This document shows, piece by piece, positions 2,276 to 42,842 of a stretch of 64,000 nucleotides of DNA. Source of the stretch: Roseococcus sp. SYP-B2431 (GTDB taxonomy: Bacteria; Pseudomonadota; Alphaproteobacteria; Acetobacterales; Acetobacteraceae); NCBI RefSeq assembly GCF_004336745.1, contig NZ_SJXD01000028.1, positions 1 to 64,000 on the forward strand, in the 5' to 3' direction. The notes under the pieces were generated by a model. It was not told the origin of the DNA, did no database searches, and worked only from the letters and a program-made list of their open reading frames with translations. The position numbers were made by a program, and so were the translations under genes. How positions within the stretch are numbered: the first letter of the stretch is position 1; each line of letters opens with the position of its first letter.

Positions 2276-2286
2276 AGATGTTTTTT
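2243..2286 (+). terminator. Intrinsic terminator overlapping the pheS stop codon
   Basis: A perfect 15-base-pair inverted repeat (2243-2257 with 2263-2277, five-base loop CTGCA) is followed by ATG and six Ts at 2281-2286. The pheS TGA (2273-2275) lies in the 3' arm. It stands between two subunit genes that are normally co-transcribed, so it may act as a partial terminator or attenuator. Confidence 0.75.
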
Positions 2287-2400
2287 GCGCCCTCAGACGC
2301 CGGGCGGCCGCATCCGCGGCCTTGGCTTCGCCGCAGCATTGTCGCGCCGACGATCACGGTCGGTGGGGCGGCGGGCGCGCTGTTCGCGCGCCATTCTCTC
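2281..2400 (+). repeat. Dispersed two-hairpin element, copy A (pheS-pheT gap)
   Basis: First copy of a family that recurs at 17583, 17696, 24253 and 42732. It begins at the T-run and runs through CCCTCAGACGCCGGGCGGCC to a terminal CCATTCTCTC. Hairpin 1 is GGCCGC/GCGGCC at 2306-2321. Hairpin 2 is GGCGCGC/GCGCGCC at 2374-2392. The stem sequences differ from the other copies, but complementarity is kept. It fills almost the whole gap before pheT. Confidence 0.7.
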
Positions 2401-2417
2401 GAGGCTGGAGCAGGCCG

Positions 2418-4889
2418 ATGAAGTTTCAGTTGTCTTGGCTCAAGGAATATCTCGACACCGACGCTTCGGTCGATGAGATCGCCACGACGCTCAACGCCAT
2501 CGGCATCGAGGTCGAAGGCATCGAGAACGCGGCCGCCGCGCTCGCCTCCTTCCGCATCGCCCGCGTGATCGAGGCCGTGCAGCACCCCAATGCCGACCGC
2601 CTGCGCCAGCTGCGCGTCGATCTCGGCGACGGGCGTGAATATTCCGTGGTCTGCGGCGCGCCCAATGCGCGCACGGGCCTCGTCGGCGTGGCCGCCCTGC
2701 CCGGCGACTACATCCCCGGCACCGACGTCACGCTCAAGGTCGGCGAGATCCGCGGCGTGAAGTCCGAGGCCATGATGCTCTCCAAGCGGGAGATGGGCCT
2801 CGGCGACGACCATTCCGGCATCGTGGAGCTGCCGGAAGACGCGGCGATCGGCTCGCGCTACGTGGATTACGCTGGCCTCGACGATCCCATTCTCGAGATC
2901 AAGGTCACCCCCAACCGCGGCGACGCCCTGGCCATCCGCGGCGTGGCGCGCGACCTCGCCGCCGCCGGGCTCGGCACGCTGAAGCCCTGGTCCGCGCCCA
3001 AGATCGCTTCGGTCTATGAGACGCCGCTGCGCTGGCAGATCGAGGATCCGCGCGCCTGCACCTGGGTGGTCGGCCGCGCGATCCGGGGCGTGAAGAACGG
3101 CCCCTCGCCGCAATGGCTGCAGGACCGGCTGACGGGCATCGGCCTGCGCCCCATCTCCGCGCTGGTGGACGTGACCAACTGGTTCACCTTCGCCCTCGGC
3201 CGCCCGCTGCATGTCTTCGACGTGGCGAAGGTGAAGGGCTCGACGCTCTCCATGCGCATGGCGCGGGCGGGCGAGGAGCTGCACGGCCTCAACGGCAAGA
3301 CCTACGCCCTGACGGACGAGGACGGCATCATCGCCGACGCGGCCGGCCCCGAGGCGCTGGGCGGCATCCTCGGCGGCGAGCCCTCCGGCTGCGACGAGAC
3401 GACCACCGAGGTCTTCATCGAATGCGCCCTCTTCGACCCCGTGCGCATCGCGCTCAGCGGCCGGCGGCACAACATCTTCACCGACGCCCGCGCCCGCAAC
3501 GAGCGCGGCCTCGACCAGGCGATGCTGCCGGCGGCGCTGGACGCCGCCACGGCCATGATCGTCGAGCTCTGCGGGGGCGAGCCCTCCACCGTCAGCGAGG
3601 CCGGCTCCGAGCCGCTTTGGCGCCGTGAGGCCACGCTGCGCCTCCCCCGCCTCGCGGAGCTCGGCGGGCTGATGCTGCCGCCGCACGAGGCCGAGGGACG
3701 ACTGGAGCGTCTGGGCTTCACCGTCACCGCCCGCGGCGCCGATCGCCTGACCGTCGCCGTGCCGCCCTGGCGCAACGACATCGCCGCCCACATCGTGCTC
3801 GACCAGGATCCCAGGCTCGACCCCGAGCGCGCGCGCGTCGCCGCCGAAGGCTGTGCCGCCGTCGAGGCCGAATGCGACCTGATCGAGGAGGTGCTGCGCC
3901 TCGGCGGGCTGGACGCGGTGCCCTCGGTCTCGCTGCCGGTCGCCTCGCCCGTGCCCCTGCCCTCGCTGGAGCCGAAGCAGGTGCGCGCCGTGCTCGCGCG
4001 CCGGGTGCTGGCCGCGCGCGGAATGCAGGATTCCGTGACCTACGGCTTCCTGGAGACCCGCATCGCCGCGATGTTCGGCGAGACGCCCGAGGCGCTGCAT
4101 CTGGAAAATCCGATCGCCTCGGACCTCGACCAGATGCGGCCGACGCCGCTCGCCTCCCTCGCCATGGCCGCCGCGCGGAACGCCGCGCGCGGCTTCGCGG
4201 ATGTGGCGCTGTCCGAGGTCGGCGGCGGCTATCGCGACACCTCGCCGGCGGGGCAGCTGGCCATCGCCTGCGGGCTGCGCGCCGGCAGCTCGCCCGCGAA
4301 CTGGGCCTCGCCCGCGCGCCCCTTGGACGCGCTGGACGCCAAGGGCGACGTGCTCGCCGTGCTGGAGGCGCTGGGCGTGCCGATGGCCGCGCTCCAGGTC
4401 ACGGCCGACGCGCCGGGCCATTACCACCCTGGCCGCTCGGGCGTGCTGCGCCAGGGGCCGAAGGTGGTGCTGGCGCAGTTCGGCCAGCTGCATCCGGGCC
4501 TCTGCGCCGCGCTCGACGTGCCGGCCGGCGCGGTGGGCTTCGAGATCTTCCTCGACGCCATCCCCGAGCCCAAGCGCCGCAAGAAATCCGCGCCGGAACT
4601 CTCCGCCTTCCAGCCGGTGCGGCGCGACTTCGCCTTCCTCGTGGACGCCGACGCGCCGGCGGACAAGCTGCTGCGCGCCGTCTCCGCCGTGGAGCGCACG
4701 CTCATCACCGAGGTGGTCCTCTTCGACCGCTATGCCGGCGATCGCCTGCCGGAGGGCAAGGTCAGCCTCGCCGTCCAGGTGACGCTGCAGCCGCGCGACA
4801 AGACGCTGACGGATGCCGAGATCGAGGTCGTCGCGGCCAGGATCGTCGCGGCGGCGGCCAAGGCGGTGGGTGCCACGCTGCGCGGATAG
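2418..4889 (+). CDS. pheT: Phenylalanine--tRNA ligase beta subunit
   Basis: An 823-residue partner of PheS. Domains in order: an N-terminal segment starting MKFQLSWLKEYLDTD, an EMAP-II-like tRNA-binding domain (about residues 40-150, with the VVCGAPN motif), the B3/B4 editing region in the middle (including the RGDALAIRGVARDLAA segment), B5, a catalytic-like core, and the C-terminal FDX-ACB anticodon-binding domain (about the last 95 residues, FQPVRRDFAFLVD). The frame extends upstream to 2322, but the ATG at 2418 has a GGAG site and matches the family N-terminus. It lies downstream of repeat copy A. Confidence 0.97.
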   Translation: MKFQLSWLKEYLDTDASVDEIATTLNAIGIEVEGIENAAAALASFRIARVIEAVQHPNADRLRQLRVDLGDGREYSVVCGAPNARTGLVGVAALPGDYIPGTDVTLKVGEIRGVKSEAMMLSKREMGLGDDHSGIVELPEDAAIGSRYVDYAGLDDPILEIKVTPNRGDALAIRGVARDLAAAGLGTLKPWSAPKIASVYETPLRWQIEDPRACTWVVGRAIRGVKNGPSPQWLQDRLTGIGLRPISALVDVTNWFTFALGRPLHVFDVAKVKGSTLSMRMARAGEELHGLNGKTYALTDEDGIIADAAGPEALGGILGGEPSGCDETTTEVFIECALFDPVRIALSGRRHNIFTDARARNERGLDQAMLPAALDAATAMIVELCGGEPSTVSEAGSEPLWRREATLRLPRLAELGGLMLPPHEAEGRLERLGFTVTARGADRLTVAVPPWRNDIAAHIVLDQDPRLDPERARVAAEGCAAVEAECDLIEEVLRLGGLDAVPSVSLPVASPVPLPSLEPKQVRAVLARRVLAARGMQDSVTYGFLETRIAAMFGETPEALHLENPIASDLDQMRPTPLASLAMAAARNAARGFADVALSEVGGGYRDTSPAGQLAIACGLRAGSSPANWASPARPLDALDAKGDVLAVLEALGVPMAALQVTADAPGHYHPGRSGVLRQGPKVVLAQFGQLHPGLCAALDVPAGAVGFEIFLDAIPEPKRRKKSAPELSAFQPVRRDFAFLVDADAPADKLLRAVSAVERTLITEVVLFDRYAGDRLPEGKVSLAVQVTLQPRDKTLTDAEIEVVAARIVAAAAKAVGATLRG

Positions 4890-5068
4890 GCGGCGGCCTT
4901 CGAGATCGGGTCCGGGACAGGCGACGCTCACCTCATGCTGGAAATTCGTGCCGTTCCATGGGCAGCGGCCATGAGGCGGCGTGTCACCTCATGGGTGTCT
5001 TTCTGGAATGTCCCGGGCTGGACGAAGCGCGCCGCTTCGCACAGCCTGTGCTCCGGAGAAGAAGATCG

Positions 5069-5458
5069 ATGCGCCGCCTTGCCCTCCTCGCCGTCCTGAC
5101 GATCGGCGCGCCGCCGGCGCTGGCGCAGGGGCTGTCGCCGCCGCAGCAGCCCCCCCCGGCGGAGGTGGAATGCGTCGCGGCCGGCATCCTGTCCTTCGTC
5201 GGCATCGCCCGGGAGCTGACGGGCGCCCATGAAAGCGGGCGGCTGTCGATCACCGTGACGCTGCAGAACCGCACGCCGCGCTCGGCCGCCTTCGTCATGA
5301 ACTTCACGGCCCCCAACGTGCAGATGCCCGCCGTGAACCAGTGGCGCACGCTGGAGACGCAGGCGCGCGGCACCTATCTCGTCGGCACGCTGCCCCGCGG
5401 CACGCTGGTCACCGACGAGGAGCTGCGCGGCCACCTCCAGCTGCGCTGCGTGCGGTGA
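5069..5458 (+). CDS. Small secreted protein of unknown function
   Basis: A 129-residue protein with a clear signal peptide (MRRLALLAVLTIGAPPALAQ, cleavage expected after the first Ala-Gln region). The mature part has two cysteines (VECVAAG and LQLRCVR), which could form one disulfide, and a beta-rich stretch in the middle. The start was chosen at the ATG preceded by GGAGAAGAAG. The frame is open far upstream, but that part is the shadow of pheT. No family is recognised. The 179 bases between pheT and this gene contain no other gene or clear structure. Confidence 0.7.
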   Translation: MRRLALLAVLTIGAPPALAQGLSPPQQPPPAEVECVAAGILSFVGIARELTGAHESGRLSITVTLQNRTPRSAAFVMNFTAPNVQMPAVNQWRTLETQARGTYLVGTLPRGTLVTDEELRGHLQLRCVR

Positions 5459-5477
5459 AGGCCGCGCGCCGCGCGCC

Positions 5478-6359
5478 TCAGAATCCGTAGAACCTCGCCG
5501 GATTGTCGCGCAGGATCCGCCGGCGCAGCGCCTCCTCCGGCGCCCATTGGGCCAGCAGCCCCAGCACGTCGCCGTCATTCGGCATGACGCCCTGGAAGTG
5601 GCTCACATGCGGCCAGTCGCTGCCCCAGAGGACGCGGTCCGGCGCCGCCTCGATGACCGCCCGCGCCATCCCCGCCGTGTCCGCGTAGGGAAATTCCGGC
5701 TCGGCCGAGATGCGGGCGAGCCCCGTCAGCTTCACCCAGAGCAGCCCGTCGCGCAGCATCGCCAGGAACTCGCGGTAGCCGGGGTGGTCGATCCCGCCCT
5801 TGGCCACCTTGGTGTAGCCGATATGCCCAACCGAGATGGGCAGCCGCATGGTCTCCGCGAGCTTGCGGAGCTCGGCCGCCATCTCCTCCACATGCACCAG
5901 CAGCTCGACATGCCAGCCGAAGGGCCGCAGCACCTCCGCGACCTCGGCCAGCGCATCCAGCGAGCGGAAGGGCATGCCGCCGCGATCCACCAGGTTCACG
6001 CGGATGCCGCGCGCGCCCTTGGCGTGCATGGCGGCGATCTCGGCCTCGGTGACGCCCTCGGCGACGGCGACGATGGCGCGCAGACGGTCGGGATGGGCGG
6101 AGGCGGCGTCGAGCACGGCGCGGTTGTCGGTGCCGTGCACGCTCGCCTGGATCACCACGCCGCGCGAAAGGCCGAGCTGATCGTGCAGCGCCAGGGCCAC
6201 GCCGATGTCGTTGTCCGGCGGCGTGTAGCCCCGCGCGGCCTGGTAGGGATAACGGGCTGCGTCGAAAACGTGGAAATGCGTGTCGCAGGCGCCCTCCGGC
6301 AGGGCCATGGCGGGCTTGCGCGGATGGGGATCGGGGCCGGGGCAGTCGCGGATGTCCAT
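5478..6359 (-). CDS. Amidohydrolase of the 2-pyrone-4,6-dicarboxylate lactonase type
   Basis: A 293-residue amidohydrolase-2 family protein. Near the N-terminus lies the metal-site motif THFHVFD. Near the C-terminus lies WGSDWPH, the conserved catalytic Asp region, followed by NPARFYGF, the typical family ending. Relatives hydrolyse lactones or decarboxylate aromatic-derived acids such as 2-pyrone-4,6-dicarboxylate; the substrate here is unproven. The ATG at 6359 has an AGGGAG site five bases upstream; the slightly longer GTG start at 6365 would overlap that site. The gene sits downstream of a TAXI-type binding protein on the same strand, which suggests, but does not show, uptake of its substrate. 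Confidence 0.8.
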   Translation of the reverse strand: MDIRDCPGPDPHPRKPAMALPEGACDTHFHVFDAARYPYQAARGYTPPDNDIGVALALHDQLGLSRGVVIQASVHGTDNRAVLDAASAHPDRLRAIVAVAEGVTEAEIAAMHAKGARGIRVNLVDRGGMPFRSLDALAEVAEVLRPFGWHVELLVHVEEMAAELRKLAETMRLPISVGHIGYTKVAKGGIDHPGYREFLAMLRDGLLWVKLTGLARISAEPEFPYADTAGMARAVIEAAPDRVLWGSDWPHVSHFQGVMPNDGDVLGLLAQWAPEEALRRRILRDNPARFYGF

Positions 6360-6462
6360 GGACACTCCCTGTCATGCTTGGGGGCTTGGCCCCCAGGTCA
6401 ATCTATCGGCGCCCCGCTCGGGCTGACCAGTTCCCGCCAGCGCGAACGCCGCCCCTCCCTGC

Positions 6463-7413
6463 TCAGCCGGGCAGGCCCCGCTCGCGCACGAAGCGCCGGA
6501 CGCCCGGATGGATCAGCGCCGGATCGGCGACGGCCGCGGCCGTGTTCTCCGCCGTCGTCTCGGCGGCCTGGGCGAGCCGGGCCGCGAGGTCCGCGCGGGC
6601 CGCATGCAGCGCGCGGGCCACGCGAAAGCCGGCCTCCTCTTCCAGCCCCGGCCGCGCCAGCACGAGGCTCCAGGTCCCCACCGAGGCGATGGGCGCCGTC
6701 TGCCCCGGATAGCTTCCCGCCGGCAGCGACGTCGGCCGCAGCCGCGGATCGGCGGCGAGGATGCGCGCCCGCTCCGCCTCGTCCGGCGCGAGGAAGCGGC
6801 CGCCCTGCCCCGCCAGCGTCACGAAGCCGGGCCAGCCCGCGCCGCCGCCCCAGAGCGCGGCCACGCGCCCGTCCATGACCATCGCCGGCCCGTCCCCCGC
6901 GCGGTCGAGCAGGACGGCCGAGAAATCGCGCTCGATGTCGAGGCCGAGCCCGGCCATCACCTGCCGCGCCAGCACCACGAAGCCCGAGCCCCGCGCGCCC
7001 CAGGCGACCGGCTGGCCGCGCAGCTCGGCGATGGAGCGGATCGGGGAATCGCCCCGCAGGCCGAAAAGCCCCGGCTGCGCGTACATCGCGGCGAGCAGGG
7101 TCGTGCCGATGCCGGCGGCCAGGGCCTCGGTCGCCGTCTCGCCGGCCACCAGGCCGAGATCGACGGCCCCCTCGCGCAGCAGGCGCACATTCTCGAGGCT
7201 GCCTGCCGTGTTGCGGGGCTCGATGGCGATGGTGGGATCGGCCGCGGCGATGGCGGCCACGAAGGCCGCGCCATAGGCTGGAAAGCCGCCGCCCGGCGTG
7301 GCGGTGGCGAGCGTCAGCCGCAGCGGCGCCTGGGCCCGCCCCGTGTCGGACAAGCCGGTTCCTGCCAGCCCGGCGCCCGCCAGCGCCGTCCGGCGTGGGA
7401 ATGGATGTGACAT
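6463..7413 (-). CDS. TAXI-family TRAP transporter substrate-binding protein
   Basis: A 316-residue exported protein. The signal sequence MSHPFPRRTALAGAGLAGTGL has a twin-arginine-like pair. The mature part starts with LRLTLATATPGGGFPAYG, as in TAXI (TRAP-associated extracytoplasmic immunogenic) receptors, with NTAGSLENVRLLREGAVDLGLV further on. It would capture a small carboxylate in the periplasm and deliver it to a fused TRAP permease. No TRAP membrane gene lies next to it; the TRAP genes at 49.8-52.6 kb have their own DctP-type receptor. The amidohydrolase follows on the same strand after 103 bases. Confidence 0.8.
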   Translation of the reverse strand: MSHPFPRRTALAGAGLAGTGLSDTGRAQAPLRLTLATATPGGGFPAYGAAFVAAIAAADPTIAIEPRNTAGSLENVRLLREGAVDLGLVAGETATEALAAGIGTTLLAAMYAQPGLFGLRGDSPIRSIAELRGQPVAWGARGSGFVVLARQVMAGLGLDIERDFSAVLLDRAGDGPAMVMDGRVAALWGGGAGWPGFVTLAGQGGRFLAPDEAERARILAADPRLRPTSLPAGSYPGQTAPIASVGTWSLVLARPGLEEEAGFRVARALHAARADLAARLAQAAETTAENTAAAVADPALIHPGVRRFVRERGLPG

Positions 7414-7456
7414 GACGGCCTCCCTTGTTTGGGGGGAGCCTAGGCGGGAGGGACGG

Positions 7457-8180: not shown

Positions 8181-10091
<1,911 letters not shown>

Positions 10092-17522: not shown

Positions 17523-17549
17523 TTCCCTCACACGCGATCGCGTGACGGG

Positions 17550-17582
17550 CGCCGGGGGGAAACCCCCGGCGTTCTTTTTTTA
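17550..17582 (+). terminator. Intrinsic terminator after the MHS transporter
   Basis: A nine-base-pair stem CGCCGGGGG/CCCCCGGCG (17550-17558 with 17563-17571) with a GAAA loop, followed by TTCTTTTTTT. Repeat copy B1 begins directly at this T-run. Confidence 0.88.
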
Positions 17583-17692
17583 TGCCCTCAAACGGCGGGC
17601 GGCGGCTCCGCCGCCTGGCCTTCGCCGCGCGAGAGTCCCGCAGATCGGGAAGGTCGGGTGGGCGGCGCCGGCCGCCTTGCGGCCGGAGGGTT
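17583..17692 (+). repeat. Dispersed two-hairpin element, copy B1
   Basis: Starts TGCCCTCAAACGGCGGGCGG directly after the T-run. Hairpin 1 at 17598-17615 is a seven-base-pair stem with loop GCTC. Hairpin 2 at 17668-17686 is CCGGCCGC/GCGGCCGG with loop CTT. The next copy repeats it about 110 bases later. Confidence 0.8.
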
Positions 17693-17695
17693 CCC

Positions 17696-17803
17696 ATCTC
17701 AAACGGCGGGCGGCGGCTCCGCCGCCTGGCCTTCGCCGCGCGAGAGTCCCGCAGCTCGGGAGGTGGAGCGGGCGGCGCCGGCCGCCTTGCGGCCGGAGGG
17801 TTA
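17696..17803 (+). repeat. Dispersed two-hairpin element, copy B2 (tandem duplicate of B1)
   Basis: Nearly identical to B1 with a period of 110-111 bases, differing mainly around the mid-region (GATCGGGAAGGTCGGGTG against GCTCGGGAGGTGGAGCG). Its end overlaps the TAA stop of the minus-strand MFS gene at 17801-17803. Confidence 0.8.
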
Positions 17804-19009
17804 CCGCGCCGCAGCCGCCACCCGGCCCGTCCCCCGCGCCCTCTGCCAGGCCAGCAGCGCCAGCGCCGCCACCAGCGGCGGGATCAGCGTCAGGTTCAGC
17901 ACGCTCCAGCCCAGGCGCGCATGCACGTAGCCCGAGAGGAAGGCCGTGCAGGCCACCGTCCCGAAGACGATGAAGTCGTTCGCCGCCTGCGCCTTCACCC
18001 GCTCCTGCGGCGCGTAGCTCGCCGCCTGCAGCGAGGTCGCGCCCACGAACATGAAGTTCCAGCCCAGCCCCAGCACCGCCTGTCCGACGGCGAAATGCGT
18101 GAAGGTCTCGCCGGAGAGCAGCACCACGACGCAGACGGCCGTGAGCAGCGCGCCCGCCACGATGACCGGCCGCACGCCGAAGCGCTGGATCAGCCGCCCC
18201 GTGAAGAAGCCGGGCGCGAACATCGCCAGCGCATGCAGCTGCACCACCGTCGAGGAATCGCTGATCGAGAAGCCGCAGAGCTGCATCTCCAGCGGCGTCG
18301 CCGTCATGGCGAGGTTCATCGTGCCATAGGCCACCATGCCGGCGACGACGGCGGTGACGAAGGTCGGGCGCCGGATGATGTCGCCGAGCGGCGTCGCAAC
18401 CTTGGCCCGGGCCGGCAGCGGCGGCAGCTTGAGCCCGCTCAGCAGCACGAGGGTCGCCAGCGGGACCAGCCCCATCACGATATAGGTGCCCAGGAAGACA
18501 TGCGGCAGGAAGGCCTGGTGCGTGTGCTTCACGATCTCCGGCCCGAAGAGGGCGGAGAGGACCGGCCCCGCCATGACGAGCGCGATGGCGCGCGGGCGAT
18601 AGGCCGGCGTCGCCGCCTCGGCCGCGGCGAAGCGGTAGTGCTGCGCCACGCCCCAGCTCAGCCCCGCGAGCGCCGCGCCCAGGCAATAGACCCAGAAATC
18701 CTGGTGATAGACGCCGAGCCCGAAGGCCACCGAGGCGAGGATCGAGACGCCGGCACCAGCGAGGAAGCCCGCCCGCCGCCCCCAGCGGGCGAAGACGTAG
18801 GAGGCCGGGATCGAGGCCGTCATGCTGCCGGCCATCTGGATGGCCATGGGCAGCGTCGCGAGCGCGATGTCGGAGGAGAGGCTGCGACCGATCAGGGCGC
18901 CCATGGTGGCCTGGCCGATCATCGTCAGGTTCATCAGCGCCTGGCAGAAGAACAGCCGCCAGACCGTGACGCGCATCGCGCGATCCCCGGAAGGATTCTC
19001 AACCGACAT
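17801..19009 (-). CDS. MFS transporter (drug/metabolite efflux type)
   Basis: A 402-residue membrane protein with about twelve hydrophobic helices. It starts MSVENPSGDRAMRVTVWRLFF, has a loop 2-3 basic motif FARWGRRAGFL, and a second one (RLIQRFGVRP) in the C-terminal half. The substrate is not recognisable. Its ATG follows the thiL stop with no gap (TGA then ATG), so it is translationally coupled to the end of the rib-nusB-thiL run. It converges on the MHS transporter, with the B repeat pair between them; its stop codon lies inside copy B2. Confidence 0.85.
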   Translation of the reverse strand: MSVENPSGDRAMRVTVWRLFFCQALMNLTMIGQATMGALIGRSLSSDIALATLPMAIQMAGSMTASIPASYVFARWGRRAGFLAGAGVSILASVAFGLGVYHQDFWVYCLGAALAGLSWGVAQHYRFAAAEAATPAYRPRAIALVMAGPVLSALFGPEIVKHTHQAFLPHVFLGTYIVMGLVPLATLVLLSGLKLPPLPARAKVATPLGDIIRRPTFVTAVVAGMVAYGTMNLAMTATPLEMQLCGFSISDSSTVVQLHALAMFAPGFFTGRLIQRFGVRPVIVAGALLTAVCVVVLLSGETFTHFAVGQAVLGLGWNFMFVGATSLQAASYAPQERVKAQAANDFIVFGTVACTAFLSGYVHARLGWSVLNLTLIPPLVAALALLAWQRARGTGRVAAAAR

Positions 19010-23800: not shown

Positions 23801-24253
23801 TCACGGAGTGTCCAGGCCGCCGAGGAAAGCCTGGAAGTCCTTGGCCTCGGAGAAGTTCTGGTAGACCGAGGCGAAGCGCACATAGGCCACCTGGTCCACG
23901 CCCTTCAGCGTGTCCATGACCATCTCGCCGATGCGGCGCGAGGAGATCTCGGCATCCGTCTCCATCTCGAGGCGGCGCTGGATGCCGTTGAGCAGGCGCT
24001 CGATCTGGTCGTCGCCGATGGGCCGCTTGCGGCAGGCGATGCGGATGGACTTGCCGAGCTTGTCGCGGTCGAAGGGGACGCGGCGGCCGTCGGTCTTGAG
24101 CACGGTGAGCTCGCGCAGCTGCACCCGCTCGAAGGTCGTGAAGCGATTGCCGCAGGCCGGGCAGAAGCGCCGCCGCCGGATGGAGGAGCCGTCGTCGGAA
24201 GGACGGCTGTCCTTCACCTGGGTCTCATCGTTACTGCAATAGGGACAACGCAT
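23801..24253 (-). CDS. nrdR: Transcriptional repressor NrdR
   Basis: A 150-residue regulator of ribonucleotide reductase genes. The N-terminal zinc ribbon is [17 protein letters not shown] with the second pair in [14 protein letters not shown]. The ATP-cone domain follows ([22 protein letters not shown]). The C-terminal part fits the family. Its start codon directly abuts repeat copy D, so that element lies in the leader region of the mRNA or between an upstream transcript and this gene. The order glyA-nrdR-ribD is the usual alphaproteobacterial one. Confidence 0.96.
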
Positions 24254-24372
24254 TTTACGCCCTCAAACGCCGGGCGCCGGCTCCGCCGGCTTGGCTTCGC
24301 GCCCTGTCATGGATCGCCAGCTCAGCGGTCGGTCGCGGCGCGCCGGCCGCACGTGCGGCCGGATTCTCTCAA
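24253..24372 (+). repeat. Dispersed two-hairpin element, copy D (glyA-nrdR gap)
   Basis: Reads TTTTACGCCCTCAAACGCCG to GGATTCTCTCAA. Hairpin 1 at 24276-24290 is GCCGG/CCGGC. Hairpin 2 at 24343-24362 is a perfect 20-base palindrome. It lies between two minus-strand genes, starts at the base complementary to the A of the nrdR ATG, and has no neighbouring terminator, unlike the other loci. Confidence 0.75.
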
Positions 24373-24405
24373 CCCGTGCTGATCCTAGCAGGAGATCGCG
24401 CGCCC

Positions 24406-25704
24406 TCAGTAGATGGGGAAGCGGGCACAAAGCGCCTTCACTTCCTCGGCCACCGACTTCTCCACCGCCGCATTGCCCTCGGCCGAATTCGCCGAGGCCA
24501 ACCCGTCCAGCACGCGGCCGATCAGCTTCGCCACCTGCTGGAACTCCGCCTCGCCGAAGCCGCGCGAGGTCGCGGCCGGCGAGCCCAGCCGCACGCCCGA
24601 GGTCACCATGGGCTTGGCCGGATCGAAGGGGATCGCGTTCTTGTTGCAGGTGAGATGCGCGCGGTTCAGCGCCGCCTCGGCATCCTTGCCGGTGAGGTTC
24701 TTCGGCCGCAGGTCCACCAGCATCAGGTGATTGTCCGTGCCGCCGGTCACGATGCCGAAGCCCTGGGCCTTCAGGCTGTCGGACAGCGTCGCGGCATTGG
24801 TGACCACCTGGCGCGCATAGGCGCGGAAGTCGGGGCGCAGCGCCTCCGCGAAGGCCACGGCCTTGCCGGCGATGACATGCATCAGCGGCCCGCCCTGGAG
24901 ACCGGGAAAGACGGCCGAGTTGATCTTCTTGGCGAGCGCCTCGTCATTGGTGAGGATCAGCCCCCCGCGCGGGCCGCGCAGCGTCTTGTGCGTGGTGCTG
25001 GTCGTGACATGCGCATGCGGCACCGGCGAGGGATGCGCGCCGCCGGCGACCAGGCCCGCGAAATGCGCCATGTCCACCATGAAATAGGCGCCCACCTCGT
25101 CCGCGATCTCGCGGAACCGGGCGAAGTCCCAGTGGCGGGCATAGGCCGAGCCGCCGGCGACGATGACCTTGGGGCGGGACTCGCGGGCGATGCGCGCGAC
25201 CTCGTCCATGTCGATCAGCTGGTCCTCGCGGCGCACGGTATAGGGCGCCACCTTGAACCACTTGCCCGACTGGTTGGCGGGCGAGCCATGCGTCAGATGC
25301 CCCCCGGCCGCGAGGTCGAGGCCCATGAAGGTGTCGCCGGGCTGCATCAGCGAGAAGAACACGGCCTGGTTGGCCTGGGCGCCGCTATGCGGCTGGACAT
25401 TGGCGAAGCCGGCGCCGAAGAGCTGCTTCACGCGCTCGATGGCCAGCGTCTCGGCCACGTCCACGAACTCGCAGCCGCCGTAGTAGCGGCGGCCGGGATA
25501 GCCCTCGGCATACTTGTTGGTGAGCACCGAGCCCTGCGCCTCCAGCACGGCGCGGCTGACGATGTTCTCCGAGGCGATGAGCTCGATGCCGTCCTGCTGG
25601 CGGACCAGCTCCTTGCCGATGGCATCGGCGATCTCGGGATCGGCTTCGGCGATTCCGGCCTGGAAGAAGCGGGCGGGGAGGAAACGGGCGGCAGCTTCGT
25701 TCAT
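24406..25704 (-). CDS. glyA: Serine hydroxymethyltransferase
   Basis: A 432-residue PLP enzyme that converts serine and tetrahydrofolate to glycine and 5,10-methylene-tetrahydrofolate. Visible are the N-terminal [32 protein letters not shown], the PLP-lysine region [16 protein letters not shown] and the C-terminal [18 protein letters not shown]. Length is normal. The ATG at 25704 gives the family N-terminus; the longer frame to 25743 does not. Its product feeds one-carbon units next to the riboflavin and nucleotide-regulator genes. Confidence 0.97.
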
Positions 25705-25807
25705 CGCGGACGGTCCTTCGGCGTGTCCCGCGGGGCATATCACAGGCCGCGCGGGGCGGGATACCGGGGGCGCCTCGGGCCAGGCCGGTCCCGACGGCGT
25801 GACGGGC

Positions 25808-37197: not shown

Positions 37198-37218
37198 GGG
37201 AGTACCGCTTCCGTGCTG

Positions 37219-37746: not shown

Positions 37747-37754
37747 GATTTTGG

Positions 37755-38345
37755 TCATGGCCAGCACGCCTTGAGGGCGCGCGGGATGTATCTGCGGCCG
37801 GCGACCACGGTAAGGCACTTCCGCATGGCGCGGAGCCAGGTGAAGGCGCGCTGCTTCGGCCAGCCTCTGATGGTGGGAAGCCGCGCCAATTGCAGGTCGA
37901 AGAGCTTTTCGGACAAATCCGGATCGGGGCACATCCAGGGCGGCCCGGGCAAGGCGCGCTTCAGCTCGAGCCGGCGGGCCAGGAGGATGATGCGGAAGCC
38001 GCGCAGGCGGATGGCCCGGCGCGCCGCGCGGCAGATGGGGCCGAGGAGGTTTTTCAGCGGGTGGCCCTTGGGGGCGGCGGCCAGGGCGAGGAGAAGGTGT
38101 TCCCAGAGCCCCTGATGGGTGAGGCGCCGAAAGTAGCGGGAGACAGTGTCGGGCTTGCCGTGGCTCTCGGGGAGCTCGTGCCAGGGACCGTCGGTGGCGG
38201 CGACGCGGAAGATGGCGTCGAAGCGGGCGCGGTGGTCGCAGGGGCGGCCGCGAGAGCCGCGCGAGGCGCGGAGGACGTAGGGGGAGAGGGCGGCCCATTC
38301 GGCATCGGAGAGGAGGGTGTGGGGGATGCGGAGGGGAGCGGGCAT
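37755..38345 (-). CDS. IS5-type N-terminal (DUF4096-like) protein without a DDE domain
   Basis: 196 residues. The N-terminal part ([18 protein letters not shown] through [22 protein letters not shown]) is the helix-turn-helix-like DUF4096 region found at the start of IS5/IS1182-type transposases. The second half ([29 protein letters not shown] and further) shows no recognisable DDE catalytic residues and keeps the basic, high-GC style of the host. It may be a truncated transposase or a domesticated stand-alone protein. The start [12 protein letters not shown] (38345) is preferred over the longer frame to 38402. A near-consensus promoter lies only six bases upstream. Confidence 0.7.
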
Positions 38346-38351
38346 CTCGGA

Positions 38352-38380
38352 ATTATAGGAAAATAACCATAAAATTACAA
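38352..38380 (-). promoter_or_regulatory. Near-consensus sigma-70 promoter for the DUF4096-like gene
   Basis: On the minus strand TTGTAA (38375-38380), a 17-base spacer (38358-38374) and TATAAT (38352-38357). The -10 box ends six bases before the ATG at 38345, which implies a leaderless or nearly leaderless mRNA. The region (38346-38400) is strongly AT-rich in a 70 % GC chromosome. Confidence 0.65.
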
Positions 38381-38509
38381 GAAAAATCGTTATCCTGCGC
38401 ATCTATGAGGGCCTTACGCCGTCCATGCTGCTTATATCCGTTAGAATCAAACACAGAACAGCCGTTCTCTGCTGCGCAATTAGTACTGGCCGCTCAAAAC
38501 CTGAGGCGG

Positions 38510-39007
38510 CTACATGCTCGCCTCCCAGCCTGTATAAAAGTTGAGGTTGGCAATGAAGGTCACGGGATTCATCCAGCTCACCCCGCAATCGCTACAGACG
38601 TCGGGGACATGACGCCTAGCCCCAGTACGCTTCGGCTTTGAGACCTCGGCGGTGACCACCCGGCGGTCAATATGGCCGAGCGCGGCAGCTATAAGAAATG
38701 GGTCCTGCCCAATTGTGATTAGATCGGCTTCTGTAAGTGAATCGCCGTAAAGGCTGAGCACCCTCTGAACAGCGGAGGGTTCGCTCGTCTCTCCTAAGAG
38801 CAACGCCTTCTTGGTCGCCGTATCGCGCATCCAACGGGCAAGTTCGTCGGTCCCGCTTTCAACCTCTGCATAAATTTCAGCGGGCAGCTTCACCGTCCCG
38901 GCTTCGCCGTGGTGGAGCAGCCACCGCCAAAACTCCGGAACACGCCGATGCCCATACCATGTGTTCTGCGCCGTGATGAGCGCGTTTGCATCAAGCAGGT
39001 AGAGCAT
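38510..39007 (-). CDS. PIN-domain protein (DUF4411-type), probable toxin
   Basis: A 165-residue small nuclease-like protein. It starts MLYLLDANALITAQNTWYGH (first PIN acidic residue in LLDAN). The middle has VPEFWRWLLHHGEAGTVKLPAEIYAEVESG, the DUF4411 style, then LITIGQDPFLIAAALGH and VVTAEVSKPK. PIN toxins of type II systems cleave RNA. The start codon overlaps the stop of the HTH/metallopeptidase gene upstream by one base (TAATG), so the two are translated together. G+C is lower than the core, pointing to transfer. Confidence 0.78.
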   Translation of the reverse strand: MLYLLDANALITAQNTWYGHRRVPEFWRWLLHHGEAGTVKLPAEIYAEVESGTDELARWMRDTATKKALLLGETSEPSAVQRVLSLYGDSLTEADLITIGQDPFLIAAALGHIDRRVVTAEVSKPKRTGARRHVPDVCSDCGVSWMNPVTFIANLNFYTGWEASM

Positions 39008-40236
39008 TAGGTCGAGGCCCGCCGCGGCTCATTTAGTAGCGGGTAGACGTTCATCGGCTTGACGCCGAGCATCCTTGCCGCCCTGGTCGGCGTAAGAGAT
39101 CCATCGGCCATACCTTGGCGGGCAACGGCAAGAATGGCAGCGCCAAGACGATGTCGCCTGACGACGTACCAATTTGGCCCGCCATCTTCGCTCCGGCTCT
39201 TTTCCCGATTCAGCGCTTTCTGAGCGCGCCACTGTCCCTGAAACGCATCCCGCAACGCCTCCCAACGAGCTTCGGCGATCATTCCAGTGCGGAACAGCTG
39301 GTAAGCAACCATAGATCGGCTAATGCGTGCCTGATTTGCCAGCGCATCAATAGCGTCGACATCGCCTTCACCGCCGTCCAGCAGCGGCCCAATACTGGTG
39401 ATCTCTGTCAGATCCACGAGCACCGCGGCCGCTGCGTCGTTGCAAAGTTGCTCCACGCGACCATGCGGCGCGCCGCCGCTAACGCCCGTTTCACCCAACA
39501 GCAAGTGCGCCAATTCATGAAGCAGCGTGAAGGCCCACGCGGACTTAGCGTCCTGGTCGTTCACAACGATGAAGGGAGCCAGTTTGTCCGCAATGGCGAA
39601 GCCGCGGAAGACGTTTGCCTCGATAGCCGTAGACCAATGCCCGCAATCCCCAGCCAGCAAGACAAATACGCCCTTGCCTTCAACCAACCCTCGAAGGTAG
39701 GCGAATGCATCCTCATTTCTTGCGTGGGCGCGGTACGTTTGGCGGTTGAATTCAATTGCCGCGACGATCCTCTCCGCCAGCGCCTCGGGATTTCGTATGG
39801 TGACGGCCGAGCCCACCAATTCTACCTCGGCCACATCTTCGTCGTCCTCAAGGACCTCCCTCACCAACGCCTGCCTCGCCTTCACATCCCGGAGTAGAGA
39901 AGCCAGCAACACGTTGGAGGGCTCACCTTGATCCGGTAGCGTCCTGAAGTCGTGACCAAGGTCTGCCGGCGTGGGCACTTTCGGTAGGTAAAATGTAAGC
40001 AGTGGGCGATGATACTGCGCCGCCATGCGTCGCAACAGTGGTGCCGTGGGGGGTACCTGGCCGGTCTCCAAGGCCGCTAACCGGTCTTCACCCGCCACTC
40101 CTCGAGCGGCCTTCAGGTCGATCTTGCGGGCAGCCGTTTCCCTATCGAGACCCGCAGTCTCTCGCGCCCAGATCAGGATCTCGGGGTTCAAGCCTGCCAC
40201 CTCCTCACCATGCACATAAGGAGACCGTTGCGCCAT
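39007..40236 (-). CDS. HTH/ImmA-IrrE family metallopeptidase, probable antitoxin
   Basis: 409 residues. The N-terminal region (about 15-85) is an Xre-like helix-turn-helix (LIWARETAGLDRETAARKI, LAALETGQVPPTAPLLRRMA). The middle holds the zinc-peptidase motif HELAH at 240-244 (ImmA/IrrE family) with the following acidic region. The C-terminal part ends in a short helix-turn-helix-like motif (TPTRAARMLGVKPMNVYPLLN). Relatives pair with DUF4411 PIN proteins as type II toxin-antitoxin operons; the peptidase may control the DNA-binding activity. The start is the ATG at 40236; the upstream 110 bases hold the presumed promoter and a hairpin-like stretch at 40318. Confidence 0.75.
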   Translation of the reverse strand: MAQRSPYVHGEEVAGLNPEILIWARETAGLDRETAARKIDLKAARGVAGEDRLAALETGQVPPTAPLLRRMAAQYHRPLLTFYLPKVPTPADLGHDFRTLPDQGEPSNVLLASLLRDVKARQALVREVLEDDEDVAEVELVGSAVTIRNPEALAERIVAAIEFNRQTYRAHARNEDAFAYLRGLVEGKGVFVLLAGDCGHWSTAIEANVFRGFAIADKLAPFIVVNDQDAKSAWAFTLLHELAHLLLGETGVSGGAPHGRVEQLCNDAAAAVLVDLTEITSIGPLLDGGEGDVDAIDALANQARISRSMVAYQLFRTGMIAEARWEALRDAFQGQWRAQKALNREKSRSEDGGPNWYVVRRHRLGAAILAVARQGMADGSLTPTRAARMLGVKPMNVYPLLNEPRRAST

Positions 40237-40346
40237 GGGGCAAGCGGATCGCCGGAATCGCAGGCTGAACCAGAGCGAGTTCAGGCGAAACCCAGGCAGC
40301 CTACATATCTAAGGTACTCCGGTCACGGAGCTAACTATGGAGGCCC

Positions 40347-41444
40347 TTACAACAAAGCCAGCTGCCGATCATCCACCCGCCCATTGAACTGCGAGCAGTC
40401 CAGCGCCTTCGCCCACATCCGCTCCCCGATCCCCGCGCGCTTCACCGCCAGCTGGAACCGCTGCCCCAGCACCCCGGCATAGGCCCCGTTCCCGCTCTGC
40501 CGCTGCCCGAAGGTGGGGTCGTATAGCTTCCCGCCCCGCGTCTGCCGGATCAGCGCCAGCACCTTCGCCGCGCGGTCCGGAAAGTGCTGGTTCAGCCAGT
40601 CCTCGAAGATCTGCTTCAGCTCCAGCGGCAGGCGCAGCAGCACGTAGCCCGCGCTGTCCGCCCCGGCCCGGGCGCTGGCCTCCACGATCTTCTCCATCTC
40701 GGCATCGTTGATGCCGGGGATCATCGGCGCCGCCAGCACCGCCACGGGGATGCCGGCCGCCGAAAGCTGGCGCACCGCCTCCAGCCGCCGCACCGGGCTC
40801 GCCGCGCGGGGCTCCATGATGCGCGCCAGCCGGGCGTCGAGCGTGGTGATCGAGACGCAGACGCGCACCAGGTTCTTCTTCGCCATGCGCGCGAGGATGT
40901 CGATGTCGCGGATCACGCCCGCGCCCTTGGTCACGATGCTCAGCGGGTGGTTGAAGCGGTCCAGCACCTCGAGGATACGGCGCGTCAGGCCCTGGTGGCG
41001 CTCGATGGGCTGGTAGGGGTCGGTGTTGGCGCCCAGCGTCACCGGCTTCGGCGTGTAGCCGGGGCGGGAGAGCTCGCGCGCCAGGATCTCCGGCATGTCG
41101 GGCTTGAAGAGGATCTTGGTCTCGAAATCGAGGCCGGGGGAGAGGCCGACATAGGCGTGGCTCGGCCGGGCGAAGCAATAGACGCAGCCGTGCTCGCAGC
41201 CCCGGTAGGGGTTGAGCGAGCGGTCGAAGCCGATGTCCGGGCTGTCATTGTAGGTGAGCGCCGACTTCGCCGCCTCGCGCGTCAGCGTGGTGCGCAGCGG
41301 CGCGATGTCCTCGACCAGGGAGCCCCAGCCGTCGTCGAAGGCCTCGGCGACCTGCGTCTCGTAGCGCACATGCGGGTTGGAAACCGCGCCGCGGCCCTTT
41401 TGGTACCCGCTGGGGGCGAGAGGATAATGAGCACCGTCCGGCAT
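40347..41444 (-). CDS. PA0069-family radical SAM protein (SplB-like)
   Basis: A 365-residue radical S-adenosylmethionine enzyme with the cluster motif in YRGCEHGCVYCFARPS (Cys-x3-Cys-x2-Cys), then KPVTLGANTDPYQPIE and LSIVTKGAGVIRDIDILARMA. The family is related to spore photoproduct lyase but its reaction is unknown. A perfect GTTC-N7-GTTC SOS box lies seven bases upstream of the start codon, so it is probably repressed by LexA and induced by DNA damage; this supports a DNA-repair role but does not prove it. The start is the ATG at 41444. Confidence 0.85.
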   Translation of the reverse strand: MPDGAHYPLAPSGYQKGRGAVSNPHVRYETQVAEAFDDGWGSLVEDIAPLRTTLTREAAKSALTYNDSPDIGFDRSLNPYRGCEHGCVYCFARPSHAYVGLSPGLDFETKILFKPDMPEILARELSRPGYTPKPVTLGANTDPYQPIERHQGLTRRILEVLDRFNHPLSIVTKGAGVIRDIDILARMAKKNLVRVCVSITTLDARLARIMEPRAASPVRRLEAVRQLSAAGIPVAVLAAPMIPGINDAEMEKIVEASARAGADSAGYVLLRLPLELKQIFEDWLNQHFPDRAAKVLALIRQTRGGKLYDPTFGQRQSGNGAYAGVLGQRFQLAVKRAGIGERMWAKALDCSQFNGRVDDRQLALL

Positions 41445-41450
41445 GACCGT

Positions 41451-41465
41451 GTTCTCTTCTTGTTC
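41451..41465. promoter_or_regulatory. LexA/SOS box upstream of the radical SAM gene
   Basis: GTTC (41451-41454), seven bases, GTTC (41462-41465), the alphaproteobacterial LexA motif, read GAAC-N7-GAAC in the direction of the gene. A second, one-mismatch copy (GAAC-N7-GAAT) lies at 41503-41517. Confidence 0.65.
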
Positions 41466-41520
41466 CTAAGCGGAAGGTGGCGAAGGCCGGCCCGTCCGTC
41501 AAGAACAAAAAGAGAATGAA

Positions 41521-42132
41521 TCAGGCGTGGCCGGCCTCGGCGGAGAGGAGCGTGGGGTCGATGTTCAGCTTGGCGAGGGCGCGGCGCCAGCGCGTCGCAT
41601 CGTCGCCGCCGAAGAGCAGGTCCTCGTCGGCGGGGACGGAGAGCCAGTCGTTGCGGGCGATCTCGGCCTCCAGCTGGCCGGCGCCCCAGCCGGCATAGCC
41701 GAGCGCGAGCAGGCCCTGGCGCGGGCCGCCGCCGGAGGCGATGGCCTTCAGGATGTCGAGGCTGGCGGTGAGCGCGTAGCCGCCCTCGACGGGGAGCGAG
41801 CCCTCGGCCTTCCACTCGCCGCTGTGCAGCACGAAGCCGCGGCCTTCCTCGACGGGGCCGCCATTCACCAGGCGGATGCTGCGCTGGGGCGGCAGCGGCT
41901 CCACGCCCGCCTGCTTCAGCAGCTCCTCGAAGGAGAGCTTGGGGATGGGCTGGTTGAGGATGAGCCCCATCGCGCCGCCGGCGGAATGCGCGCAGAGGAC
42001 GATCACGCTGCCGGCGAAGTTGGGGTCCCGCATATTGGGCATGGCGACCAGCAGCTGCCCCGCCAGCGGCGTGCCGGCCTCCTCGAGCGGCTTGGGGGCC
42101 CCGAAGGCCGATTTCCAGTCATGTCTTGCCAT
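41521..42132 (-). CDS. YqgE/AlgH family protein
   Basis: A 203-residue protein: PLAGQLLVAMPNMRDPNFAGSVIVLCAHSAGGAMGLILNQP is the family hallmark, followed by LVNGGPVEEGRGFVLHS and ALGYAGWGAGQLEAEIARNDWL. The family (UPF0301) is widespread; its biochemical role is not settled, with links to alginate regulation and general gene regulation. The ATG at 42132 is used; the longer frame to 42168 adds no family sequence. It lies just upstream of the radical SAM gene and is divergent from the peroxiredoxin. Confidence 0.92.
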   Translation of the reverse strand: MARHDWKSAFGAPKPLEEAGTPLAGQLLVAMPNMRDPNFAGSVIVLCAHSAGGAMGLILNQPIPKLSFEELLKQAGVEPLPPQRSIRLVNGGPVEEGRGFVLHSGEWKAEGSLPVEGGYALTASLDILKAIASGGGPRQGLLALGYAGWGAGQLEAEIARNDWLSVPADEDLLFGGDDATRWRRALAKLNIDPTLLSAEAGHA

Positions 42133-42231
42133 GGGGACGAATGTGAGGATGCGCCATCGCCTCCGCAAGCGTGACAGGATTCTTCCCAGGGCCTAAACCT
42201 TCCCCCACTTTCCCCTCGGAGGAACACCAGG

Positions 42232-42714
42232 ATGACGATCAAGGCCGGCGACAATATCCCCTCGGCGAAGCTCATGCAGGCCACGGCGGAGGGGCCGGTG
42301 GAGGTCTCCACGGACGACCTCTTCGCCGGCAAGACGGTCGTGCTCTTCGGCGTGCCGGGCGCCTTCACGCCGACCTGCTCGGCCAAGCACCTGCCGGGCT
42401 TCGTGACCCAGGCGGCCGCGTTCCAGGCCAAGGGCGTGGACACGGTGGCCTGCATCGCGGTGAACGACGCCTTCGTGATGGGCGCCTGGCGCAAGGACCA
42501 GTCGATCGGCGACGAGGTGGTGATGCTGGCGGATGGCAGCGCGGCCTTCACCAAGGCGATGGGGCTGGAGTTCGACCTGACGGCGCGCGGCCTCGGCGTG
42601 CGGAGCCAGCGCTTCGCGCTCGTGGCGAAGAACGGCGTGGTGACGCATGTGGCCGTGGAGGCGCCGGGCGCCTTCGAGGTGAGCAAGGCTGAGACGGTTT
42701 TGGCTGCGCTTTAG
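42232..42714 (+). CDS. Peroxiredoxin (Prx5 type)
   Basis: A 160-residue thiol peroxidase that reduces hydrogen peroxide and alkyl hydroperoxides. The peroxidatic cysteine is Cys49 in PGAFTPTCSAKHLPG, with the conserved Thr and Pro; AVNDAFVMGAW and RSQRFALVAKNGVV follow the Prx5 pattern. No second cysteine is present, so a 1-Cys mechanism with an external reductant is likely. The ribosome-binding site is GGAGGAAC. The stop codon lies in the loop of the terminator hairpin. Confidence 0.94.
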   Translation: MTIKAGDNIPSAKLMQATAEGPVEVSTDDLFAGKTVVLFGVPGAFTPTCSAKHLPGFVTQAAAFQAKGVDTVACIAVNDAFVMGAWRKDQSIGDEVVMLADGSAAFTKAMGLEFDLTARGLGVRSQRFALVAKNGVVTHVAVEAPGAFEVSKAETVLAAL

Positions 42715-42736
42715 CGCAACCAAAACCTCGATTTTT
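42696..42736 (+). terminator. Terminator built from the end of the peroxiredoxin gene
   Basis: The arms GGTTTTGGcTGCGC (42696-42709) and GCGCAaCCAAAACC (42714-42727) pair over 13 base pairs with one mismatch (loop TTTA). TTTTT at 42732-42736 follows. The TAG stop (42712-42714) lies in the loop. Repeat copy E starts at this T-run. Confidence 0.82.
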
Positions 42737-42842
42737 ATGCTCTCAAACGCCGGGCGGCGGCTCCGCCGCCTTGGCTTCGCGCCAAGACTGGCACGCGGGA
42801 TGTGAGGGTAGCCTGGGCGCGCCGGCCGCCGTGCGGCCGGAT
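42732..42842 (+). repeat. Dispersed two-hairpin element, copy E
   Basis: TTTTTATGCTCTCAAACGCCG to GTGCGGCCGGAT (ends at 42842). Hairpin 1 at 42753-42770 is a seven-base-pair stem with loop GCTC. Hairpin 2 at 42822-42840 is CCGGCCGC/GCGGCCGG with loop CGT. It lies between the convergent peroxiredoxin and M20-amidase genes. Confidence 0.8.

What the first reader, a model, noticed from the sequence alone, without database searches (positions are those of the whole stretch)
2281..42842. Family of about 110-120-base two-hairpin elements: five copies at four loci, same orientation
Copies at 2281-2400, 17583-17692, 17696-17803, 24253-24372 and 42732-42842 share a left end (TGCCCTCAAACGCCGGGCGG-like), a first hairpin, TTGGCTTCGC, a variable middle of about 45 bases, and a second hairpin with GGCCGG at its base. 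The stems differ (hairpin 2: CCGGCCGC in B, D and E, GGCGCGC in A), but both arms change together, so structure seems to be selected or mechanistically constrained. All five lie on the plus strand as written, outside genes. They are too long for classic REP units and carry no gene, so they look like a small non-autonomous mobile element or a structured RNA module. I do not recognise it as a described family.
Basis: partly seen in the sequence, partly recalled or inferred. Interest (0 to 1): 0.75.

Follow-up and report, generated by a model that had tools for sequence, protein, structure and literature searches.

The report
Operon-tolerant mobile hairpin element family
A 120-140-base DNA element with paired hairpins has spread through the genomes of Roseomonas-like bacteria and often sits exactly where one gene ends and the next begins, apparently without breaking the hand-over of ribosomes between the two genes.

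Summary
The five copies are real and belong to a large family. A covariance model finds at least 69 full or partial copies in this genome, on both strands, and matches in 21 of 21 genus genomes and 13 of 102 sampled genera of the family. Four stems covary: 18 of 23 pairs change on both sides among 103 matches, mostly as G-C/C-G swaps, without preference for G-U. Co-directional own copies run with the genes (28) as often as against them (26), so a strand-specific RNA role is unlikely. Empty sites show insertion: pheS-pheT is filled in 6 and empty in 13 of 19 genomes. At two further junctions bare genomes show an overlapping stop/start codon (ATGA), and 6 of 9 filled ones have DTGA on both sides, in both orientations. 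Among 100 co-directional copies, 23 carry an ORF from the upstream stop codon to the downstream start codon; frame shifts of 1-2 nt leave 4-5. It works like mycobacterial MIRUs but inserts both ways. No mobilising enzyme was found. Verdict: new variant of a known kind, a non-autonomous, operon-tolerant mobile element.

The parts
2281..2416 (+). Copy A, between pheS (ends 2275) and pheT (starts 2418); T-run 2281-2286, core 2289-2394 (model match), right tail to 2416; GATG at 2277-2280 and 2417-2420 is a candidate 4-bp duplication
   Evidence: C28:2289-2394, E 8.0e-11; genes; empty sites in 13 of 19 genomes; coordinates
2272..2421 (+). Reading frame through copy A: from TTG 2272 (overlapping the pheS stop by 4 nt) or ATG 2278, through the element, to TGA 2419-2421, which overlaps the pheT ATG by 4 nt
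   Evidence: openness of such frames is expected at this G+C
17575..17692 (+). Copy B; T-run 17575-17581 directly follows a terminator-like hairpin; core 17584-17688
17693..17800 (+). Copy C, in tandem behind B (core start to core start 111 bp); core 17695-17798; ends against the convergent MFS gene 17801-19009
24254..24387 (+). Copy D, between glyA (SHMT, 24406-25743 minus) and nrdR (starts at 24253, minus); runs against the operon; the complement of its left end reads GAGGGCGTAAA-ATG, Shine-Dalgarno-like sequence in front of the nrdR ATG; core 24259-24364; right limit approximate
   Evidence: also filled at the orthologous place in G012 (locus 18)
42732..42866 (+). Copy E, between a plus-strand gene that ends at 42714 (ORF 42232-42714, not scanned for families) and a convergent M20 peptidase gene (42870-44111 minus); core 42739-42842; right limit approximate
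42739..42749 (+). Conserved left terminus GCYCTCARACG (copy E as example); complement reads TGAGRGC. Its first four bases could pair with GGGC at 42752-42755, but those columns do not covary
42749..42775 (+). Stem P1 (42749-42751 with 42773-42775) enclosing GGGC and hairpin P2 (42756-42761 with 42765-42770, loop TCC)
   Evidence: covariation; coordinates
42778..42821 (+). Stem P3 (42778-42783 with 42816-42821), enclosing the variable middle; two main states CGCCGC/GCGGCG and CGCGCC/GGCGCG
42822..42840 (+). Stem P4 (42822-42829 with 42833-42840), followed by AT and a tail of family consensus about TCTCGGAGGGC

Best explanation
It is a family of non-autonomous mobile DNA elements (about 120-140 bp, palindromic, REPIN/MITE-like in build) that accumulates at gene borders of Roseomonas-group bacteria. 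Shown: many copies, covarying stems, insertion into formerly tight or overlapping gene junctions, both orientations, re-use of the same junction, DTGA on both sides of the element in 6 of 9 filled genomes at two junctions whose bare form is ATGA, a candidate GATG duplication at a third, and an excess of copies whose reading frame links the upstream stop codon to the downstream start codon. Inferred: an enzyme acting in trans recognises the hairpins, probably as single-stranded DNA or extruded hairpins, and inserts the unit with a duplication of about 4 bp. Insertions survive best where that duplication keeps both the upstream stop and the downstream start, and where ribosomes can re-initiate into the element and hand over again to the next gene, or where the element's ends (GAGGGC on the outgoing strand) serve as a ribosome-binding site. 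The element is thus 'transparent' to the operon, as proposed for mycobacterial MIRUs.
For: 69 own copies at E <= 7.4e-5; 21 of 21 genus genomes carry matches. Covariation: 18 of 23 pairs, 300 cells, score 0.346 against a shuffle mean of 0.077. Empty sites: pheS-pheT filled in 6 and empty in 13 of 19 genomes, G002 in the opposite orientation, G010 with a second partial reverse copy. Junction 2 (C31:3821): 2 of 17 genomes filled (G000, G012, both ATGA...ATGA), 9 of 17 with a bare 4-nt overlap of the same length, 6 unfilled with other spacers. Junction 1 (C1:1326238): 7 of 18 filled, three one way and four the other. Coupled ORF: 23 of 100 co-directional copies; 3.7-5 after shifts of 1 or 2 nt; 22.9-23 after shifts of 3; 18 of the 23 have a 4-nt DTGA overlap at both ends. 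DTGA at both borders 31 of 100 copies against 43 of 393 control gaps (p = 3e-6), upstream alone 51 of 100 against 101 of 393 (p = 3e-6). No own copy (0 of 69) lies wholly inside a called gene. Divergent gaps hold 2 of 69 copies against 50 of 371 control gaps. A start codon 5-11 nt after the element's left end in 12 of 23 copies that run against the adjacent gene.
Against: No mobilising enzyme found: Y1 transposase (PF01797) in 1 of 21 genus genomes and not in this one; reverse transcriptase (PF00078) in 7 of 21 and not in this one; other transposase families were not searched. No longer autonomous version among 157 left modules in the DNA held. At junction 1 three of seven filled genomes (G015, G005, G014) have ATGT, not DTGA, at the downstream start. 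Downstream DTGA alone is not significantly enriched (46 of 100 against 139 of 393, p = 0.06). A permutation test for a shared DTGA in the two flanks is significant only for copies against the genes (13 of 47, mean 7.6, p = 0.002), not for copies with them (7 of 66, mean 4.7, p = 0.16) or convergent ones (0 of 37); no general shared k-mer marks the borders. Open frames through the element are no more frequent than in shuffled sequence (3.59 of six against 3.66 and 4.34). The right border is variable. My gene caller is home-made and start codons are uncertain. The two extra junctions were chosen because this genome's copy showed the coupled frame. Copies and genomes are related, and some cases in the 100 are orthologous (for example L156 and L310), so p values are rough.
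Confidence: 0.7

Rival explanations
1. Cis-acting structured RNA (3'-UTR or intercistronic regulator, processing or stability element) conserved by selection on the RNA fold.
For: Strong covariation; many copies lie between co-directional genes and would be transcribed; 9 of 37 same-orientation copies lie just behind a stop-codon hairpin plus T-run that looks like an intrinsic terminator.
Against: Orientation relative to co-directional genes is even, 28 with and 26 against; G-U pairs are no commoner than A-C mismatches, 9 against 30 cells, part of the latter possibly from aligning variant P4 stems; presence/absence varies between congeners at the same junction; no Rfam match.
Confidence: 0.12
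2. REPIN moved by a RAYT/TnpA-REP single-strand transposase (Y1 HUH).
For: Two hairpin-bearing ends with similar outer sequence (GCCCTC...CCGG) in inverted orientation around a variable spacer; extragenic and high copy; tandem runs occur, as reported for REPINs (passages of PMC3116915).
Against: PF01797 not found in this genome nor in 19 of the 20 other genus genomes that carry the elements; hairpin foot is GGGC, not GTAG; a 4-bp duplication is not expected from Y1 chemistry (recalled).
Confidence: 0.1
3. Retroposed small RNA (SINE-like): read on the other strand the unit ends in an A-rich tail at its precise end, has a variable other end and a short target duplication.
For: T-rich left terminus of variable length next to the junction; distance from the core's right end to the junction varies from about 13 to 60 nt in the 23 coupled copies.
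Against: No reverse transcriptase in this genome and none detected in 14 of 21 genus genomes.
Confidence: 0.08
4. Covariation is neutral: arms are kept complementary by template-switch correction of quasi-palindromes or by conversion between copies, not by selection for structure.
For: Changes are mostly clean G-C/C-G swaps; different P2 arms at the same junction in different genomes (loci 6 and 11); fresh inverted copies of gene ends arise next to the elements.
Against: Loop (TCC) and linkers (TTGGCTTCGC, GGGC) are conserved as well, which correction alone would not keep.
Confidence: 0.25

Closest known systems
MIRU (mycobacterial interspersed repetitive units)
   Same: Mobile-looking intercistronic repeats; insertion at start codons so that an ORF inside the repeat is coupled to the gene with -4 nt spacing, probably with little effect on its expression (review passage in PMC12548453; the original, Supply 1997, was not seen).
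   Different: Strong covarying hairpins; both orientations relative to the operon; hosts are Acetobacterales. Sequences were not compared. That MIRUs lack dyad symmetry and keep one polarity is recalled.
REPINs / REP sequences with RAYT transposases
   Same: Extragenic, high copy, two inverted ends with a spacer that fold into hairpins, non-autonomous (abstract and passages of PMC3116915).
   Different: Four stems; no GTAG tag; PF01797 found in only 1 of 21 carrier genomes.
CGTC-tagged REPs of Alphaproteobacteria
   Same: Palindromic, mainly alphaproteobacterial, without an associated transposase, between unidirectional or convergent ORFs (abstract and passages of PMC3733652).
   Different: Those are REPs of 20-40 bp with 8-9 bp stems that begin with A-T pairs, and CCA tails; here stems are almost pure G-C and the unit is about 135 bp.
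MITEs and small pneumococcal repeats (BOX, RUP, SPRITE)
   Same: Small, structured, non-autonomous, target duplications for BOX and RUP; SPRITE has AAAA/TTTT ends and lies near CDS 3' ends (passages of PMC3049150).
   Different: No partner IS known; only about 6 bp of similar outer sequence at the two ends; GC-rich; ATGA junctions.

Membership tests
MIRU | Insertion at start codons / overlapping stop-start codons | tested here: met
   Junctions 1 and 2: bare ATGA; DTGA on both sides in 6 of 9 filled genomes; 31 of 100 copies against 43 of 393 control gaps. A subset of copies only.
MIRU | ORF inside the repeat coupled to the neighbouring gene by a 4-nt overlap | tested here: met
   23 of 100 against 3.7-5 in frame-shift controls; 18 of 23 with 4-nt overlaps at both ends. 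A subset only; translation not shown.
MIRU | Fixed polarity relative to the operon (recalled) | tested here: not met
   28 with, 26 against
MIRU | Mycobacterial repeat sequence | not tested
   No sequence comparison was made; hosts are Acetobacterales. Not filed as a MIRU.
REPIN/RAYT | Cognate Y1 transposase in the genome | tested here: not met
   1 of 21 genus genomes; 0 in own
REPIN/RAYT | Inverted hairpin-bearing ends around a spacer | tested here: met
   similarity of the outer ends is short (GCCCTC)
GTAG/CGTC REP | GTAG or CGTC tag at the hairpin, 20-40 bp unit | tested here: not met
   P2 foot GGGC, unit about 135 bp. The complement of the left end often contains CGTC (as in GGCGTCTGAGGG), but outside P1 and without A-T stem starts.
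MITE | Terminal inverted repeats shared with an IS in the genome | not tested
   No search of IS ends; only the Y1 and RT families were searched
MITE | Target-site duplication | tested here: inconclusive
   DTGA at two junctions and candidate GATG at pheST, but no duplication detected in convergent copies
Known Rfam RNA | Match to a family model | tested here: not met
   0 at gathering over the window; best E 1.2 around copy E

The most novel reading that the evidence does not exclude
A previously undescribed mobile-element system whose unknown enzyme moves a four-stem palindromic unit preferentially into translational-coupling sites. The unit is operon-neutral in either orientation (duplicated ATGA, frame-keeping spacer, outgoing ribosome-binding sites) and is an independent counterpart, in Alphaproteobacteria, of the mycobacterial MIRU strategy.
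Probability: 0.35. Interest if true: 0.8.

Novelty: new variant of a known kind. Interest (0 to 1): 0.62.

Why it matters
It would be a second, unrelated case of mobile DNA living inside operons by preserving stop/start coupling, which makes the idea of an operon-neutral parasite testable across phyla. The repeated insertions at known junctions are natural experiments on what happens when a 4-nt gene overlap is replaced by a 130-nt coupled spacer. The mobilising enzyme is unknown and may be new.

Tried and rejected
Rejected or negative: RAYT origin; reverse-transcriptase origin not supported; known RNA family; plasmid copies (no match in PLSDB with copy E, distant mode); pseudoknot GCCC/GGGC (columns nearly invariant, no covariation); special freedom from stop codons (not above shuffles); a general target duplication found by shared k-mers (not found); an autonomous long version (of 157 left modules 11 lacked a perfect right hairpin of 6 bp or more within 150 nt; most of these 11 still show a mismatched one, and none was followed into longer DNA). 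A first version of that scan used a wrong pattern and was redone.

Literature: searches (listings and abstract starts only) showed no description of this family; most subscription journals are not in that library. In RepRanger (PMC12306157, passages) the words Roseomonas, Roseococcus and Acetobacter do not occur in the main text, but it lists Lichenicola cladoniae (recalled as Acetobacteraceae) with 1,369 REPs, which I did not compare.

Not done: orientation against replication direction (draft contigs); within-species polymorphism; a search of IS terminal repeats.

Rows dropped: context analysis used 69 of 80 matches (E <= 7.4e-5). The coupled-frame test used 100 co-directional copies out of 185 (69 own, 103 named, 13 of the 15 matches in G012); dropped were copies without a called neighbour or with one beyond 250 bp, convergent and divergent copies, and spacers over 260 bp. 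Comparison with G012 found orthologous flanks for 36 of 69 copies, using 1.6 Mb of that genome. At pheS-pheT 19 of 21 genomes could be aligned, at junction 1 18 and at junction 2 17. In a first reading I counted 20 DTGA pairs; the recount gives 18.
Full report
What is there. A blastn search with copy E finds 44 matches in this 4.7-Mb genome (first-look candidates 181, 40 scored). A covariance model built from 31 own copies finds 80 at E <= 0.1, of which I used the 69 at E <= 7.4e-5; they lie on both strands (150 of 18,023 candidates scored). In a 60-genome sample 21 of 21 genomes of the genus have matches; outside it G031 and G035 (same family) and G046 (another family) have 32, 23 and 21, and G036 and G042 one and two weak ones. 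In 120 genomes spread over the family, 17 genomes in 13 of 102 genera match at E <= 1e-4.

Structure. Consensus: T-rich end, GCCCTCARACG, stem P1 (3 bp) around GGGC and hairpin P2 (6 bp, loop TCC), TTGGCTTCGC, stem P3 (6 bp) enclosing about 30-35 variable bases, hairpin P4 (8 bp), AT, and a tail of about TCTCGGAGGGC that fades out some 24 bases on. In the 31 copies 98.3% of cells pair and 8 of 27 pairs change on both sides. In 103 matches from 100 named loci searched, 18 of 23 pairs do, 300 cells, covariation score 0.346 against a shuffle mean of 0.077 (that alignment was fitted to the model, so it leans towards the structure). Swaps are mostly G-C to C-G; G-U cells number 9 and A-C cells 30, which does not look like RNA selected on this strand. 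The outer sequences of the two ends, GCCCTC...CCGG, are similar in inverted orientation. The GCCC/GGGC pairing (a possible pseudoknot) hardly varies and so stays untested. Folding energies are ordinary.

Placement. With a simple codon-usage gene caller, 0 of 69 own copies lie wholly inside a gene. Flanks are co-directional in 54 (28 with, 26 against the genes), convergent in 13 and divergent in 2; control gaps without elements are 266/55/50 (chi-square p = 0.04, or 0.0009 against control gaps of at least 20 bp). In 40 of 69 copies the left end is within 13 nt of the neighbouring gene, either its stop codon or, for a gene on the other strand, its start codon. Where it faces a start codon its complement reads TGAGGGC, and in 12 of 23 such copies a start codon follows 5-11 nt later, a plausible Shine-Dalgarno spacing (in three of the 12 the GAGGGC itself is altered); in four the start codon is directly adjacent, and in seven it is further away or not found. 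Copy D does this for nrdR.

Insertion. At pheS-pheT (copy A) the two genes overlap or nearly touch in 13 of 19 genomes, while 6 carry an element: five in the same orientation, one reversed, and G010 with an extra partial reversed copy. I then took two junctions chosen because this genome's copy carried the coupled frame. Junction 2: G000 and G012 of 17 genomes are filled, both ATGA...ATGA; nine show the bare 4-nt overlap at the same length, and six are unfilled with other spacers. Junction 1: 7 of 18 genomes carry recognisable elements, three one way (G000, G016, G011) and four the other way (G001, G015, G005, G014), some degenerate; four of these seven have DTGA on both sides, while G015, G005 and G014 have ATGT downstream. 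Of the 11 unfilled, four show the bare ATGA, three a TGATG overlap and four other spacers. That is mobility with re-use of a junction. Of 69 copies, 36 had orthologous flanks in the 1.6 Mb of G012 fetched; these include clean empty sites, sites filled in both, remnants and unrelated spacers (the printout was cut).

Coupling. In copy A the frame opened at the former junction runs through the element and stops on the pheT start codon. To test whether this is chance I took 100 co-directional copies (45 own, 46 from named loci, 9 from G012). An ORF starting on the upstream stop codon and ending on the downstream start codon exists in 23. After deleting or inserting 1 or 2 nt it exists in 3.7-5, and after 3 nt in 22.9-23. 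Eighteen of the 23 have 4-nt DTGA overlaps at both ends; the other five have a 1-nt overlap at one end. A looser definition gives 32 against 5.6-17; a first test on 43 own copies gave 16 against 7.6, sd 2.3. DTGA at both borders occurs in 31 of 100 copies and 43 of 393 control gaps; the upstream border alone is enriched (51 against 101 of 393), the downstream one not significantly (46 against 139 of 393, p = 0.06). Against over-reading: open frames are not commoner than in shuffled sequence, so the signal is in the frame and the borders, not in special coding capacity. In a permutation test shared DTGA words exceed chance only in copies that run against the genes, and convergent copies show none (0 of 37), so I attribute the ATGA pattern mainly to survival of insertions there, possibly plus targeting. 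Some of the 100 cases are orthologous and so not independent.

How it works. Best reading: a non-autonomous palindromic element moved in trans, with about 4-bp duplication, that is tolerated inside operons because both genes keep their stop and start codons and translation can pass through or restart at its ends. Presence/absence, orientation freedom and duplicated DTGA at junctions are shown; the enzyme, single-strand recognition and actual translation are inferred.

Comparison. The nearest in behaviour are MIRUs, which a 2025 review describes as inserting at start codons with an internal ORF coupled at -4 nt (passage in PMC12548453). The nearest in build are REPINs, but their transposase family is found in only 1 of 21 carrier genomes, and the CGTC REPs of Alphaproteobacteria, which also lack a known transposase (PMC3733652, abstract and passages). 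I file it in none of these; it is a new variant of small interspersed mobile repeats. Eight text searches (listed in Tried and rejected) showed no description of it.

Noticed in passing
Own copies C12:578838, C12:102729, C1:718101, C2:73371, C26:91960, C30:95823, C12:509546, C12:128232, C2:95282 (loci L188, L170, L173, L164, L176, L174, L159, L168, L179): Around the stop codon in front of the element's T-run lies a perfect inverted repeat (7-18 bp) whose left arm is the gene's own 3' end, making a terminator-like hairpin plus T-run: 9 of 37 same-orientation copies against 1.8% of draws from 385 control gene ends. In C12:102729 and C30:95823 the G012 orthologue has the element without the inverted copy, so it probably arose after insertion.
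   Followed up: partly
C12:87116, C2:88190, C2:45980 (loci L199, L196, L194): P2 is replaced or enlarged by another hairpin of the type GGTTGGGGC...GCCCCAACC, apparently a nested insertion or stem swap.
   Followed up: no
G008 and G015 matches; own C12:221703-222082 (L189): Tandem runs of the element with about 116-119-bp periods in relatives and 138 bp in this genome.
   Followed up: no
Loci such as L055, L056, L068, L110, L112 (Roseomonas, Falsiroseomonas and related MAGs): A second architecture: same left module, but P3 closes a very short loop and two further hairpins follow, the first often with a CATTCG-type loop.
   Followed up: no
G012 orthologues of copies E (C28:42739) and C12:426791: Mostly a left piece survives, with P1 and P2 fused into one long perfect hairpin (for example CGCCAGGCGCGC...GCGCGCCTGGCG), as if stems are perfected during decay.
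   Followed up: no
window 17548-17582: Terminator-like hairpin (GCGCCGGGGG...CCCCCGGCG) ending in the T-run that starts copy B.
   Followed up: no
pheS-pheT junction in G004, G003, G014, G010 and named loci L046, L115: Copies share a P4 variant (GCGGCCGC-type) and a similar tail ending in GATCC/CATCC before the pheT start, suggesting one old insertion inherited across genera, while P2 differs between them.
   Followed up: partly
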